From assembly GCA_017612555.1 (NCBI GenBank), contig JAGAFR010000080.1, positions 1 to 60,357 on the forward strand: 60,357 nucleotides of DNA, in the 5' to 3' direction. A program made the position numbers and the translations under genes. The stretch is from Lachnospiraceae bacterium (GTDB lineage Bacteria; Bacillota; Clostridia; Lachnospirales; Lachnospiraceae). This document shows positions 17,137 through 46,828 of this stretch, in pieces (positions within the stretch are counted from its first letter, which is position 1; each line of letters opens with the position of its first letter). The notes under the pieces were generated by a model. The model had not been told where the DNA came from and made no database searches. It was given only the letters and a program-made list of their open reading frames with translations.

Positions 17137-18087
17137 ATGAAGAAGAGAATAAAAAAAACGTGTTATTCCGGAATAGGCGGCCAGGCTGTACTTGAAGGGA
17201 TAATGATGAAGAACAAGGATATGTATTCGGTCGCGGTCAGAACTCCTGACGGTGACATTGACGTATCTGTTGAGGAGTATGAATCTTTTGCGCCGTCAAA
17301 GGCGCTGACCCGCATACCCTTTATCAGAGGCGTTTTTAATTTTATCGATTCACTTATCCTTGGTATCAGAACGCTCAATTATTCCGCTTCTTTTTATGAG
17401 GAAGAGCAGGATACGCATAAGAAAGACAAGATACTCGACAGGATATTCAAGGATCATACCGAGAAGGTGCTTTCCGTTGTTACGGTCATATTTTCCATGG
17501 CCATTGCCATAGGACTTTTTGTGCTTGCACCTTATTATCTGTCAAGGCTTTTGTCCAGCGTCATCGTAAGTGATACTGCGATAGCGATCGCTGAAGGGAT
17601 ATTGCGTGTGATCATCTTTGTGGGATACATAGTCCTCATATCATGTATGAAGGATATCCGTCGCGTGTTCATGTACCATGGGGCGGAACATAAATGCATC
17701 AACTGTATCGAATCGGGGCATGAACTAAGTGTTGAGAACGTCAGAAAAGCATCGCGTGAGCATAAGAGATGCGGAACGAGTTTTCTGTTCTTCGTCGTGT
17801 TTATCAGCGTGATACTGTTCATATTCATAAGGGTTGACGAACCGGTTGCGAGAGTGGCCGTAAGAATACTGCTGATCCCTGTTATCGCTTCGATCTCATA
17901 TGAGATAATAAGGATGGCGGGAAGGTCTGATAACATCATCATTAAGATACTTTCCGCACCGGGGATGTGGCTCCAGCGCCTTACTACCCGCGAACCCGAT
18001 GATTCGATGATAGAGGTTGGTATTGCTGCGGTTGAAGCGGTATTTGACTGGAGGCAGTTTTTGGGAAACAATACCGATGAATTATAG
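17137..18087 (+). CDS. DUF1385 family membrane protein
   Basis: This 316-residue protein carries the family opening YSGIGGQAVLEGIMMKN, then several membrane spans (RVIIFVGYIVLISC and similar), and the conserved HGAEHKCINCIE and RCGTSFLF motifs in the middle. The His/Glu/Cys clusters suggest a metal or active site in the membrane, but the function is unknown. The ATG at 17137 fits the family start but has only a weak AGAGA site. A TTG at 17068 has a full AAGGAGG site buried in a hairpin. It overlaps prmC by 11 bases, in the usual rpmE-DUF1385-prmC-prfA order. Confidence 0.87.
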   Translation: MKKRIKKTCYSGIGGQAVLEGIMMKNKDMYSVAVRTPDGDIDVSVEEYESFAPSKALTRIPFIRGVFNFIDSLILGIRTLNYSASFYEEEQDTHKKDKILDRIFKDHTEKVLSVVTVIFSMAIAIGLFVLAPYYLSRLLSSVIVSDTAIAIAEGILRVIIFVGYIVLISCMKDIRRVFMYHGAEHKCINCIESGHELSVENVRKASREHKRCGTSFLFFVVFISVILFIFIRVDEPVARVAVRILLIPVIASISYEIIRMAGRSDNIIIKILSAPGMWLQRLTTREPDDSMIEVGIAAVEAVFDWRQFLGNNTDEL

Positions 18088-18946
18088 GGATACGATAAGA
18101 ACCGGCGAGGACAGGTTGTCATCTGCCGGAATAACGGAAGCAGCCTTGGATGCAAGGCTGCTTTTGGAATTTATTACGGGACATGACAGGAACACGCTCT
18201 TCGTATATCCCGATACCCCCGTAAGCGACGTTGACGCGGAAAAATATGAAGAGCTGATCGAAAAGAGATCAAAGCATATCCCGCTCCAGCAACTGACCGG
18301 ATCGTGTGAATTCATGGGTATGGATTTCTTTGTGAATGATAAAGTGCTCATACCGCGGCAGGACAGCGAATGCCTTGTGGAGGAAGCGATGCGGTATGTA
18401 TCGGACGGATCGGACATACTTGACCTTTGTACCGGCAGCGGATGCCTTCTGTTATCGCTGATGCACTACAAGAACGGATGCCGAGGGATCGGCATTGATA
18501 TATCTGCGGATGCTGTGGATGTAGCAAATATAAACCGTGACAGGCTCGAAGAGACAGGGGGTCTTAACGGAGGGCGTGCAGATTTTATCGTCGGAGACCT
18601 TTACGATGGGATCGCACCTGACCGGAAGTTTGATGTGATAATATCAAATCCGCCGTACATAAGGAGCGCGGATATCGCAGAACTCATGCCCGAGGTCCGG
18701 GATCATGAACCGCTCCTTGCACTTGACGGCGGTGATGACGGGCTGATCTTCTACAGAAGGATAGCAGTTTCGGCGCCGGATCATCTTGTTCGCGGCGGGC
18801 GGATCTTCCTTGAGATCGGGTACGACCAGGCGGAGGATGTGACGCGCATTCTCGCTGAGGCGGGCTTCTACGATATTAACGTAATTAAGGATTTTGGGAG
18901 AAACGATAGAGTGATCTTGGCAAGATGCGCACCTCGAAGGGTTTGA
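18077..18946 (+). CDS. prmC: release factor glutamine N5-methyltransferase PrmC
   Basis: This 289-residue enzyme methylates the glutamine of the GGQ motif in RF1 and RF2 and partners directly with prfA downstream. The SAM-binding motif is DLCTGSGCLLL, and the catalytic NPPY motif appears in IISNPPYIRS. The start at 18077 lies inside the end of DUF1385, implying translational coupling. It is separated from prfA by 283 bp holding structured element A. Confidence 0.95.
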   Translation: MNYRDTIRTGEDRLSSAGITEAALDARLLLEFITGHDRNTLFVYPDTPVSDVDAEKYEELIEKRSKHIPLQQLTGSCEFMGMDFFVNDKVLIPRQDSECLVEEAMRYVSDGSDILDLCTGSGCLLLSLMHYKNGCRGIGIDISADAVDVANINRDRLEETGGLNGGRADFIVGDLYDGIAPDRKFDVIISNPPYIRSADIAELMPEVRDHEPLLALDGGDDGLIFYRRIAVSAPDHLVRGGRIFLEIGYDQAEDVTRILAEAGFYDINVIKDFGRNDRVILARCAPRRV

Positions 18947-18993
18947 TTATTTGGGCAAACAACAAACCTTCATCGGTGCTTAGTAGAATTAAG

Positions 18994-19210
18994 CCATACA
19001 CATACACAGCCTTTATCAAAACCTTTGGAGGGCGTCTGCGCTTGACGAGGACATGTCACGATCTTTGATCGTGACAGCCTGAGCGGCGCTTGAGCGGACC
19101 CAACATCGACTTCGTCGATGTCGCCGTGACTCGATTGCTACGCAATCAAGTCATACTACGCCCGGAAAAGAGCGAGAGCGCGTTTTGAGAAAGACTGTGT
19201 ATGGGGATGG
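18994..19210 (+). repeat. structured intergenic element, copy A (candidate RNA)
   Basis: This 217-bp element lies between prmC and prfA. Its ends, 18994-19022 and 19182-19210, are inverted repeats that match at 25 of 29 positions. The core shares blocks with copy B: CAAAACCTTTGGA (19017-19029), GCGCTTGACGAGG (19038-19050) and GAGCGAGAGCGCGTTTTG (19170-19187). Predicted helices inside are CGCT/AGCG plus AGG/CCT (19039-19085) and GCGCT/AGCGC (19086-19090 with 19177-19181). Unlike copy B it also holds three extra hairpins: 19054-19076 (10 bp perfect), 19103-19121 (8 bp perfect) and 19127-19153 (12 bp, one mismatch). No family I know fits. It could be an RNA processed from the operon message or a mobile palindromic repeat. 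Confidence 0.7.
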
Positions 19211-19229
19211 CGTATAGAGAGGATTATAT

Positions 19230-25214: not shown

Positions 25215-27963
25215 TCGTGCTGAAAAGATCCTGTATGCGACCGTGTTTATTGTTTACCTCCTGTCCATGTTATATATGGGATGGTTCATTGTCGGGCAAA
25301 AAGCCGTGCTTATCCCCCATCAGGATGTGATCGATATGGAAGACTGGGTATACGTTGATCAGATGAGCGGGCCGCGAAATATCCTTGCCCCTGTCAAAGT
25401 TGAAAGGGGCGGAAGGGATGAATTCATATTTAAAGCCGATCTGCCCGATGAACTTCCCGAGGGATCGGTGATCGCTTTTCTCAACAAGTCGGATATAAAA
25501 GTCGAGATAGGCGACAGACTCGCAAAGCAGTGGAAGAGATCGGATGCCCCGCTTTTCGGAGGTCCGGCGAAGAATTCGTATTTTATAATCCCTCTCGAGC
25601 AGGATGACGCCGGTGCCGAAGTTAAGATAACCATTGATAAGGTATTCTTCAGCGGTAAGTTCTTCGGTGCATATGTAGGTAATGAATATGAAGTGGTAAG
25701 GTATCTCGAGATCGAGAGCGGAACATTCCAGTTTGCGATGTCGATCTCGCTGCTCGTGATCTCTCTTGCGATAATGATTGCCGGTATCGCTTTGAAGATA
25801 CTGTATAAGTACACAGTTAATCTGATCCTCATGGCGATGGGCATATTTGTCACTTCGTCGTGGATGGTTGTCGATTCGTTTGTATTCCAGTTCCTGTTCA
25901 GGACGCAGTTCATAGACGGACTCATGTCATATATGACGACGCTTTGCATCACGTTTCCCTTTCTGGCATATCTTGACAATACACAGAAACGCAGATACAG
26001 AAAATGGTATTTTGCTATACTGATCACGGAGTTCGCAGGTCTTATCTTATTTACCGGACTGCACTTTATGCGCATACTCAATTTTACCATAGCACTTCCG
26101 TATCTTGACGGGGTGGTGGCCATCGCCGCTGTCGCAGCACTTGTCATAACCATCATAGATATAAAAAGAGGTAATTCCCAAAGCTACAGATTCGTGGCAT
26201 ATGGGTTCCTTGCATTCATGGTGCTGTGTATTGTCGAGATAATCCTGATCAATACTGTTGTTGAACGTACCGAAGGCGGTGTGGTGATAGCCGGATTATA
26301 CATTCTGTTTGCCTTTGCCATTGTCCAGCAGATCTCTGAGATAAAAGAGATGCAGCTCGAGAGGGACCGCGCTGCACGGGAGGGTGAAGCAAAGACGAAG
26401 TTTTTGGCCAGCATGTCTCATGAGATAAGGACACCGATCAACTCAATCCTCGGAATGAATGAGATGATCCTAAAAGAGAGCAAGGATCCGGATGTTCTCG
26501 GGTATGCCAGGATAATAAATGACTCGGGAACGATGCTCCTGTCACTTATCAATGACGTTCTTGACATATCCAAGATCGGCAGTGATATGGAAGAGATCGT
26601 CTGCGATAACTATGACCCCGAAAAGCTCTTCGACAATGCCGCAAATATCCTTAAGACCCAGGCTGAAAAGAAGGGGATCGCATTCAAGGTGGGCAAGCCG
26701 CGCAACCTTCCGAAGATGCTCTGTGGCGACGAAAAGAGGATCACACAGATAATCGTCAACCTCATCACAAATGCAGTCAAGTACACTCAGGAAGGGCAGG
26801 TCACCTTTACCGGAGAGTGTTTTGAAAATGAGAATAAATATGTCCTCTGCTTTTATGTCAGCGATACGGGAATAGGTATAAAGGAAGAAGACATTGACAG
26901 TATATTTGACGTCTTCCACAGACTGGATCTTAAGAAGAACCAGAACATCCAGGGCACGGGACTTGGCTTGTCGATAGTAAAAAATCTCATTGAGAAGATG
27001 AACGGCCAGATACATGTTGACAGCGTATATGGCAAGGGAAGCACGTTTTCGGTCAGGATCCCCCAGGATCCCATGGATGAGCATTCATATGAAAAGTATA
27101 ATTCCGGTAACTCCATAGAAGATGATGATCTGGATGATATCGATGAGAACTATATCGCGCCTGAGGCGTTTGTACTGGAGGTTGATGACAATTCGGCGAA
27201 CCAGGTCGTTGTAAGGCAGTTCCTTAAAGGTACCGGATTAAAGCTGGATGTTGCCTCGGGCGGACGCGAAGCCGTCAGGCTGTGTAAACTCAATAAATAT
27301 GACCTGATCCTTATGGACCACATGATGCCGGCTCCCGACGGAATAGAGACGATGCACATGATCAGATCTGAAGAGGGGAGTCTAAATGCCGATACTCCCG
27401 AGATCATTCTGACGGCCAATGCGCTTATGGGAAGCAAGGCAGCATATGAGGCTGAGGGCTTTGATAATTATCTCAGTAAACCTGTTGAATCAACCAGACT
27501 CCTTAAGATGGTCAGAAAGTATCTGCCGCCCGAAAAGGTTTTGTACAAGCCTAAGAAGAGATCCCACGATGCAAATGAGTCGAGTGAACAGGCAGACAGC
27601 ATCAAAGCGGATAACAGTCCGATAGATATGCAGGAGCTGTTGGCGAGATTTGATAATAACGAAGAGACCGTGGATGTTATATTGCTGGAAGTTGTTAAAG
27701 AAGGGCAGCGCAAAATACCGCTTCTTAGGCAGCTCGCGGAGGAGGAAGACATAAGGCGGTATGCCGTGGAAGCCCACGGGGTAAAGGGTGTGATGGCAAG
27801 CACATGTATCCCCAAGTTATCTGCAACCGCCAAGCAGCATGAGCTTGCCGCTAAATCGGACGATCTGGAGTTCGTTAAGGAGAATGTGGAAGCGTTCTTA
27901 AAGGAATACTCGGAAGTGATCGATTATATCAGAGAGTATCTTGAAAAAAAAGGAATATCATAG
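25198..27963 (+). CDS. hybrid sensor histidine kinase with receiver and Hpt domains
   Basis: In this 921-residue phosphorelay protein, an N-terminal span and an outer domain of about 150 residues are followed by about seven spans (a 7TM-DISM-like layout). Then come the HisKA domain with H408 (SMSHEIRTP), the HATPase domain (GTGLGLSIVKN), a receiver with D707 (LILMDHMMP), and a C-terminal Hpt domain with H860 (EAHGVKG). All relay residues are present, so phosphate can pass internally and out to an unknown response regulator. The start has AGGAGG. It overlaps the K+ channel gene and ends the long unit at a strong terminator. Confidence 0.93.
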   Translation: MRSWVDRAEKILYATVFIVYLLSMLYMGWFIVGQKAVLIPHQDVIDMEDWVYVDQMSGPRNILAPVKVERGGRDEFIFKADLPDELPEGSVIAFLNKSDIKVEIGDRLAKQWKRSDAPLFGGPAKNSYFIIPLEQDDAGAEVKITIDKVFFSGKFFGAYVGNEYEVVRYLEIESGTFQFAMSISLLVISLAIMIAGIALKILYKYTVNLILMAMGIFVTSSWMVVDSFVFQFLFRTQFIDGLMSYMTTLCITFPFLAYLDNTQKRRYRKWYFAILITEFAGLILFTGLHFMRILNFTIALPYLDGVVAIAAVAALVITIIDIKRGNSQSYRFVAYGFLAFMVLCIVEIILINTVVERTEGGVVIAGLYILFAFAIVQQISEIKEMQLERDRAAREGEAKTKFLASMSHEIRTPINSILGMNEMILKESKDPDVLGYARIINDSGTMLLSLINDVLDISKIGSDMEEIVCDNYDPEKLFDNAANILKTQAEKKGIAFKVGKPRNLPKMLCGDEKRITQIIVNLITNAVKYTQEGQVTFTGECFENENKYVLCFYVSDTGIGIKEEDIDSIFDVFHRLDLKKNQNIQGTGLGLSIVKNLIEKMNGQIHVDSVYGKGSTFSVRIPQDPMDEHSYEKYNSGNSIEDDDLDDIDENYIAPEAFVLEVDDNSANQVVVRQFLKGTGLKLDVASGGREAVRLCKLNKYDLILMDHMMPAPDGIETMHMIRSEEGSLNADTPEIILTANALMGSKAAYEAEGFDNYLSKPVESTRLLKMVRKYLPPEKVLYKPKKRSHDANESSEQADSIKADNSPIDMQELLARFDNNEETVDVILLEVVKEGQRKIPLLRQLAEEEDIRRYAVEAHGVKGVMASTCIPKLSATAKQHELAAKSDDLEFVKENVEAFLKEYSEVIDYIREYLEKKGIS

Positions 27964-28050: not shown

Positions 28051-28079
28051 TTGACATAATCTTGGACGTGAGGTAAAAT
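28051..28079 (+). promoter_or_regulatory. promoter of the second TetR gene
   Basis: TTGACA (28051-28056), 17 bp, TAAAAT (28074-28079). The predicted start, about 28086, coincides with the first base of the 13-bp tandem repeat. Confidence 0.72.
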
Positions 28080-28085
28080 AACCAT

Positions 28086-28176
28086 GTTATGTAACAAAGA
28101 TACGTAACAACGATGTGTAACAATGATACATAACAATAAAATATAACAACGATACATAACAATGATATTTAACGGG
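28086..28176 (+). repeat. seven-unit 13-bp tandem repeat in the TetR leader
   Basis: Seven consecutive 13-bp units approximate GATACRTAACAAY: 28086-28098, 28099-28111, 28112-28124, 28125-28137, 28138-28150, 28151-28163, 28164-28176. The TAAC core is kept in all seven. Units 4 and 6 are identical, and unit 5 and the two end units are the most diverged. There is no unique spacer between units, so this is not CRISPR. It occupies most of the 117-base predicted leader. Confidence 0.88.
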
Positions 28177-35687: not shown

Positions 35688-35818
35688 GAGACGGAAGCAA
35701 TATTCTCGCCAAAACCTTTGGAAAGGGCCGGCGCTTGGCGAGGTTCTTTCGAGCCTAGCGTCCGTTGCGCTTGGAAATGAGCGAAAGCGCGTTTTGGAGA
35801 GAATGTTGCTTACGGCTC
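35688..35818 (+). repeat. structured intergenic element, copy B (candidate RNA)
   Basis: This is the compact 131-bp relative of copy A, between the activation gene and metH. The inner arms 35695-35715 and 35791-35811 pair at 19 of 21 positions plus one G-T, and extend weakly to 35688 and 35818. Conserved blocks are CAAAACCTTTGGA (35710-35722), GCGCTTGGCGAGG (35731-35743) and GAGCGAAAGCGCGTTTTG (35779-35796). Helices as in copy A: CGCT (35732-35735) with AGCG (35757-35760), AGG with CCT, and GCGCTT (35767-35772) with AAGCGC (35785-35790). The outer arm sequences bear no resemblance to those of copy A, yet are complementary here. Confidence 0.7.
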
Positions 35819-46757: not shown

Positions 46758-46828
46758 AGAATAGAAAACCGAATACACATTTGCGAAAAAGGCAGTCTTT
46801 TTCGCAAACGGTATCGGTTTTCTATTCT
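46758..46828. repeat. long imperfect palindrome between nfo and the chemoreceptor
   Basis: The outer stem is 15 bp perfect (46758-46772 with 46814-46828), the inner stem 12 bp perfect (46780-46791 with 46797-46808), and the loop GCAGT. Internal loops of seven and five bases separate the stems. It stands between divergently transcribed genes and is followed by no T run on either side, so it is not an ordinary terminator. Confidence 0.8.

What the first reader, a model, noticed from the sequence alone, without database searches (positions are those of the whole stretch)
18994..19210. Shared structured element between operon genes: copy A before prfA
Two intergenic elements 16.5 kb apart share three blocks of 13-18 bases (CAAAACCTTTGGA, GCGCTTGrCGAGG, GAGCGArAGCGCGTTTTG) in the same order, and both can fold into a long closing helix and two inner helices. 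The closing arms here are 29 bases matching at 25 positions. I do not recognise a described RNA or repeat family with these blocks. Sitting inside transcription units, it would be present in the mRNA, so it could be a processed RNA, a regulatory leader for prfA or a non-autonomous mobile palindrome.
Basis: partly seen in the sequence, partly recalled or inferred. Interest (0 to 1): 0.85.

Follow-up and report, generated by a model that had tools for sequence, protein, structure and literature searches.

The report
Palindromic mobile element with hypervariable arms
Between two genes of this gut-type bacterium sits one copy of a small, apparently undescribed jumping DNA element that relatives carry in dozens of copies; its middle is conserved and folds like an RNA, while its two ends differ from copy to copy yet match each other.

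Summary
Copies A and B belong to a high-copy mobile element: 24 strong short copies in the own genome, 46 in a congener, and no match in 247 sampled genomes of the order outside the window's family (Lachnospiraceae by record titles). Its ~87-nt core folds into a conserved structure (24 of 25 pairs with double changes; GNRA tetraloop in 50 of 51) without an Rfam match. Arms on both sides match each other but differ from copy to copy. Element-free sites in relatives lack core and arms, so the arms are part of the inserted unit. In two other genomes the unit looks like a MITE: terminal repeat GTAACAGTTCAG, about 196 or 220 nt, 8-bp target duplications. There, the middle of the arms diverges seven to ten times more than ends or core. 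Compensated arm changes are often shared between copies; one-sided changes are almost all private (Fisher 8e-6), which suggests that palindromy is restored or required at each transmission. Best reading: a non-autonomous foldback MITE whose arms are re-matched, probably by self-templated copying. A prfA leader is not supported. The mobilising enzyme and the core's role are unknown.

The parts
18990..19016 (+). left locus-specific arm of copy A (pairs with 19188-19214)
19017..19187 (+). conserved core of copy A, long form (171 nt), between prmC and prfA
   Evidence: long forms L002-L004 have matching ends (171, 172, 160 nt)
19017..19022 (+). core helix P1, 5' strand (pairs with 19182-19187)
   Evidence: sequence, by analogy to the pairs counted
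19030..19035 (+). core helix P2, 5' strand GGGCGT (pairs with ACGCCC 19158-19163)
   Evidence: sequence, by analogy to the pairs counted
19051..19157 (+). extra hairpins that replace the apical part in the long form; similar modules occur alone elsewhere in the genome
19170..19181 (+). hairpin GAGC-GAGA-GCGC with GNRA tetraloop (loop 19174-19177)
   Evidence: GNRA in 50 of 51 aligned cores
19188..19214 (+). right locus-specific arm of copy A
35695..35707 (+). left locus-specific arm of copy B, AAGCAATATTCTC
35710..35796 (+). conserved core of copy B, standard 87-nt form, upstream of a metH-like gene
35799..35811 (+). right locus-specific arm of copy B, GAGAATGTTGCTT (one G-T against the left arm)
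18017..18946 (+). prmC (flanking gene, not part of the element)
   Evidence: NCBIfam TIGR03534
19230..20306 (+). prfA (flanking gene, not part of the element)
   Evidence: NCBIfam TIGR00019

Best explanation
Copy A is one insertion of a non-autonomous, palindromic ('foldback') miniature transposable element that is widespread in one bacterial family. The mobile unit is: end repeat, variable arm, ~87-nt conserved core at the hairpin tip, complementary arm, inverted end repeat. It is inferred to move by a transposase supplied in trans that makes 8-bp target duplications. Shown: many copies; presence or absence at orthologous spacers; terminal repeats and target duplications in two other genomes; a core conserved as a folded structure; arms that change in matched pairs. 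Inferred: the two arms are re-matched at DNA level, mainly because one arm templates the other (hairpin template switch or snap-back synthesis) during replication or transposition. Arm mutations are otherwise neutral, so copies end up with unique but self-complementary arms, while core and ends are held by selection for mobility. The core probably acts as a strand-specific fold (RNA or single-stranded DNA). The prmC-prfA spacer is then a tolerated landing site, not a regulated target.
For: Copies: 24 at E<1e-6 in the own genome, 46 in G029, matches (some partial) in 27 of 37 genomes of the genus and 0 of 24 outside it; 31 of 295 sampled genomes of the order, all 31 in the window's family. Inserted unit: for 9 of 10 loci searched, at least one of three relatives has aligned flanks but no core and no arms. 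MITE features, in G331 and G332 only: TIR GTAACAGTTCAG 305 and 151 times (reversed control 2 and 0); exact 8-bp duplications in 7 of 22 copies with both TIRs recognised, 7 of 8 positions in 5 more, and in 10 of the 17 G331 copies of the arm test. Core: 24 of 25 pairs with double changes, 291 double-changed cells against 83 shuffled; GNRA 50 of 51, G-U 37 against A-C 13. Arms: identity core 0.978, ends 0.970, middle arm 0.780 in 12 copies; 43 compensated cells against 12.5 permuted; in 17 copies compensated variants mostly shared (15 of 23), one-sided ones private (23 of 24), Fisher 8.5e-6, with 11 G-U and 11 A-C; 2.8e-5 without either of two copies that share a flank. One copy (L436) has its left core half replaced by an inverted copy of the right half. 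Template switching is known to homogenise inverted-repeat arms (start of abstract of PMC8604942 seen in the listing).
Against: No mobilising transposase was identified. Terminal repeats and target duplications were seen only in G331 and G332; in the window's own genome the ends were not resolved. Perfect arms could also be kept because only perfect palindromes transpose; the data do not separate that from copying. Split by gene orientation in the window's genus, the outer arms of antisense copies show 10 G-U and 26 A-C on the core strand, that is a G-U excess on the transcribed strand; sense copies show 8 and 13, the opposite. The record titles of L225 and L244 call them MAGs, and assemblers can falsely equalise palindrome arms, though that would not make compensated changes shared and one-sided ones private. 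At locus A the closest relative G021 holds a deletion remnant, not an empty site. Relatives are not always empty: G029 carries a copy at the L027 locus, G021 a decayed one at L024 and a different element at L040, G029 a remnant at L040.
Confidence: 0.72

Rival explanations
1. The whole hairpin is a functional mRNA element (processing site, stabiliser or attenuator) kept by selection on RNA folding; arms drift with compensatory changes.
For: Strong core covariation, GNRA loop and G-U excess in the core; 20 of 24 own-genome copies lie between co-directional genes; antisense copies show a G-U excess on the transcribed strand of the outer arms, 26 against 10.
Against: No overall orientation preference (sense 25, antisense 32); sense copies show the opposite G-U trend, 8 against 13; outer arms overall show no G-U excess (G-U:A-C 12:22, 45:38, 18:23, and 48:50 in named genomes); occupancy of the same spacer varies between species.
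Confidence: 0.15
2. Palindromy is selected, not copied: only copies with near-perfect hairpins can transpose, so one-sided mutants leave no daughters.
For: Explains private one-sided and shared compensated changes, and strand symmetry, equally well.
Against: Needs two matching mutations before transmission for each of 23 compensated variants; L436 shows that inter-arm copying does occur.
Confidence: 0.3
3. The element inserts into the tip of pre-existing locus-specific hairpins, so the arms belong to the target.
For: One copy (L396) lies inside a longer palindrome; long forms show nested hairpins.
Against: For 9 of 10 loci at least one relative lacks core and both arms; TIRs and target duplications lie outside the arms in G331 and G332.
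Confidence: 0.04
4. Old elements with a core homogenised by gene conversion while arms diverge freely.
For: Identical cores with unrelated arms in one genome, L036 and L037.
Against: Many sites are empty in sister species; exact target duplications point to recent insertion in G331 and G332.
Confidence: 0.1

Closest known systems
REPINs / REP sequences (Bertels and Rainey 2011, PMC3116915; passages read)
   Same: Small extragenic palindromic mobile units with conserved ends; [quoted passage not shown]
   Different: Here a conserved structured core sits at the tip, the unit is about 160-220 nt with 8-bp target duplications in two genomes, and no Y1/RAYT gene was found in four of six carrier genomes searched.
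MITEs (miniature inverted-repeat transposable elements; definition recalled)
   Same: Short, non-coding, inverted ends, target duplications, high copy.
   Different: The interior is a conserved, covarying fold; the arms are hypervariable yet self-complementary.
ERIC / IRU and other intergenic palindromes (recalled, not compared)
   Same: Large imperfect palindromes in transcribed spacers.
   Different: No hypervariable matched arms are known to me for ERIC; no sequence comparison was made.
Quasipalindrome template switching (starts of abstracts of PMC8604942 and PMC7202029 seen)
   Same: Known process that makes inverted-repeat arms match.
   Different: A mutational mechanism, not a mobile element; here it would act on a dispersed family.

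Membership tests
MITE | terminal inverted repeats | tested here: met
   GTAACAGTTCAG in G331 and G332, 305 and 151 hits against 2 and 0 for the control; not resolved in the window's genome
MITE | target-site duplication | tested here: met
   8 bp exact in 7 of 22 copies with both TIRs, in G331 and G332; 10 of 17, a partly overlapping set; not shown in the window's genome
MITE | presence/absence at orthologous sites | tested here: met
MITE | related autonomous element with the same ends | tested here: inconclusive
   IS66 transposase (PF03050) in 1 of 4 genomes; GTAAGCGC, not GTAACAGTTCAG, lies upstream of it and its right end was not seen; TIR listing truncated
REPIN | RAYT (Y1) transposase in the genome | tested here: not met
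   PF01797 not found in G000, G029, G178, G332; found in G316 and as two fragments in G331; draft assemblies may miss genes
REPIN | palindromic unit with compensatory changes | tested here: met
Rfam RNA family | covariance-model match | tested here: not met
   0 at gathering score over the window; 0 at E<=1 for three loci, L025, L037, L053
structured RNA | covariation beyond shuffled and slid controls | tested here: met
   core only: 24 of 25 pairs, 0 of 500 shuffles
structured RNA | transcribed and stable as RNA | not testable with these tools
   no RNA data
prfA leader | conserved at prfA across relatives | tested here: not met
   locus A is short or holds other sequence in many relatives

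The most novel reading that the evidence does not exclude
An unrecognised class of bacterial mobile element in which a conserved folding core (RNA or single-stranded DNA) drives mobility and each transposition rewrites the hairpin by letting one arm template the other, so palindromy is rebuilt at every generation.
Probability: 0.25. Interest if true: 0.85.

Novelty: new variant of a known kind. Interest (0 to 1): 0.66.

Why it matters
It is a high-copy repeat of gut and rumen bacteria that Rfam 15 does not match and that my paper searches did not bring up. Its copies form a natural record of how the two arms of a palindrome evolve together, which makes self-templated repair during transposition directly testable. 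The core is a well-supported structure with no known role.

Tried and rejected
Tried without result: Rfam at gathering and relaxed thresholds; phage and plasmid collections (no match); viral contigs (one hit of the hairpin pattern); text searches for core and TIR motifs (listed titles irrelevant) and for described repeats (nothing on this element in the listings). One pattern search returned nothing because I set its gap too long. Rejected: arms copied from one flank, or pre-existing as hairpins, because element-free sites lack both arms; IS66 as the obvious mobiliser; RAYT dependence; prfA leader. The inverted repeat at 25962-26248 lies inside a long open reading frame and was taken as chance.

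Rows dropped: of 61 cluster representatives (from 125 candidate cores) I left 10 longer, shorter or divergent ones out of the 51-row alignment. The first shared-versus-private test included L382, which is shifted by an indel; it was dropped and the test repeated. L383, L384, L395, L396 and L430 are also outside that test, because one search did not place them in the 52- or 53-pair groups. L394 and L444 share their left flank; dropping either gives p 2.8e-5. G332 arms were not counted, because a one-base bulge broke the ungapped pairing.

Limits: one search scored at most 15 candidates per genome with stricter filters and at most 40, so copy numbers there are lower bounds; one search stopped at 120 stretches, 80 of them listed. 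Reading of the hairpins at loci A and B in relatives is partly by eye.

Full report
What is there. The own genome holds many more copies. A DNA search gave 22 full or partial matches, A itself included. A covariance model built from six short copies gave 24 matches at E<1e-6, plus weak matches in or near the long forms. The standard core is 86-90 nt. A and three others (L002-L004) are long forms in which the apical part is replaced by further hairpins.

The core is a real structure. On 51 diverse cores from the genus and from named genomes (10 divergent ones left out, see Tried and rejected), 24 of 25 pairs have changes on both sides and 95.9% of cells pair. No shuffle of 500 reached the observed covariation score, and sliding the partners destroys it. 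A GNRA tetraloop is present in 50 of 51, and G-U exceeds A-C 37 to 13 (27 to 13, p 0.04, without one pair), which points to folding of the plus strand. Rfam has no match.

Who has it. With the broader model 31 of 295 sampled genomes of the order match, in 14 of 130 genera; all 31 are in the window's family, of which 17 further listed genomes had none, and the other 247 had none. A pattern scan of named genomes stopped at 120 stretches. The 80 listed titles are mostly Lachnospiraceae, Butyrivibrio, Acetatifactor, Roseburia, Faecalicatena and the like, with a few such as 'Clostridiaceae bacterium' or 'Eubacteriales bacterium'. That pattern also catches a simpler two-hairpin repeat; 41 matches have the full architecture. 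Phages and plasmids had no match, viral contigs one.

The arms. In the copies laid out, the core is flanked by arms that largely complement each other. A few divergent or partial matches (L070, L071, L074) do not show this. Over 43 loci the own-arm score averages 16.0, against 6.7 (sd 1.9) for left arms paired with right arms of other copies; 36 of 43 exceed the 99th percentile of the cross pairs, and 14 of 43 do with the inner 10 nt removed. Identical cores can carry unrelated arms (L036 and L037). In named genomes arms reach 67 of 68 matched positions (L244) and 50 of 50 (L229).

Arms are part of what is inserted. At locus B, six relatives (G021, G016, G011, G001, G008, G019) have only a short spacer with neither arm, G006 has a different hairpin, G000, G004 and G029 carry the element, and G025 and G031 carry it in the opposite orientation. 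At locus A the closest relative, G021, holds a deletion remnant. G029 has another copy with different arms; by eye, G006, G025, G008 and G019 hold other hairpin elements; several others have a short spacer only. Flanks of 10 of the 24 own-genome loci were searched in G021, G004 and G029. For 9, at least one relative has aligned flanks without core or arms; L037 gave no usable pair of flanks. Some relatives are occupied: G029 at L027, decayed copies in G021 at L024 and G029 at L040, a different element in G021 at L040. So an inserted unit of roughly 160 nt includes both arms.

The cleanest view comes from two other genomes. In G331 (L244's genome) and G332 (L225's genome) 20 copies each were fetched first. 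Ends read GTAACAGTTCAG ... CTGAACTGTTAC. Of these 40 copies, 22 had both ends recognised: units of mostly 194-196 nt in G331 and 217-224 nt in G332. Seven of the 22 have an exact 8-bp duplication and 5 more match at 7 of 8. In the later set of 17 G331 copies, 10 have it exactly. The 12-mer occurs 305 and 151 times (reversed control 2 and 0), also on core-less relatives (L425-L429, L434).

How the arms evolve. In 12 G331 copies of equal arm length, mean identity is 0.978 in the core, 0.970 in the ends, 0.974 in the inner arm and 0.780 in the middle arm, with 43 compensated cells against 12.5 (max 21 of 2,000) after permutation. In 17 copies, 23 compensated variants occur in 1-8 copies (15 shared), whereas 23 of 24 one-sided variants are private (Fisher 8.5e-6; 9.1e-6 with four more copies; 2.8e-5 without either of two copies that share a flank). 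One-sided cells are 11 G-U, 11 A-C and 3 other. Two G332 copies with identical cores (L402, L404) differ in the arms by two compensated pairs, apart from the decayed left end of L404. Outer arms elsewhere show no overall G-U excess. The inner arm of G029 does, apparently through one fixed G-U position. Split by gene orientation the picture is mixed: antisense copies favour G-U on the transcribed strand (26 against 10), sense copies do not (8 against 13). Taken together, one-sided mismatches seem not to be passed on, and in G331 the rule is strand-symmetric. That fits self-templated copying, or a need for near-perfect palindromes in transposition, better than selection on RNA pairing. One copy of 188 (L436) shows the core itself made symmetric by an inverted copy of its right half.

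Mobiliser and role. IS66 (PF03050) is in 1 of 4 genomes, with GTAAGCGC rather than this terminal repeat upstream. Y1 transposases (PF01797) were not found in four of six carriers. Orientation to flanking genes: 11 sense and 12 antisense among 41 in named genomes, 5 and 15 among 24 in the own genome, 9 and 5 among 18 in the rest of the genus. The own genome leans antisense, but there is no consistent preference, which speaks against a leader function. Flanking genes at A are prmC and prfA; B precedes a metH-like gene.

Placement. It works like a MITE and meets the tested MITE features, in two relatives rather than in the window's genome. It resembles REPINs, for which compensatory spacer changes are reported (passages of PMC3116915), but shows no consistent RAYT gene and adds a conserved folded core. 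I therefore call it a new variant of a known kind.

Noticed in passing
window 28073-28173: Several head-to-tail 13-bp units (TAACAAYGATACG-like) inside an inverted repeat, between genes.
   Followed up: no
L011, L020, L022 (own genome): Hairpin modules like those in copy A's apical part occur alone next to or between tRNA-like sequences, with stems that change in step (by eye).
   Followed up: partly
L215, L223, L243, L246, L281: A simpler repeat of two adjacent CTTAGCGAGG...CGAGCTTAG hairpins, without the rest of the core, in several named genomes.
   Followed up: partly
L428, L429, L434: Core-less elements with the same GTAACAGTTCAG ends but other interiors.
   Followed up: partly
L396: A copy inserted in the middle of a longer palindrome.
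   Followed up: no
G025 and G031, locus B: Element in the opposite orientation with orthologous arms that differ by one compensated pair and one change to a wobble pair.
   Followed up: partly
window 46758-46828: Perfect 15-bp inverted repeat with a 41-nt loop.
   Followed up: no
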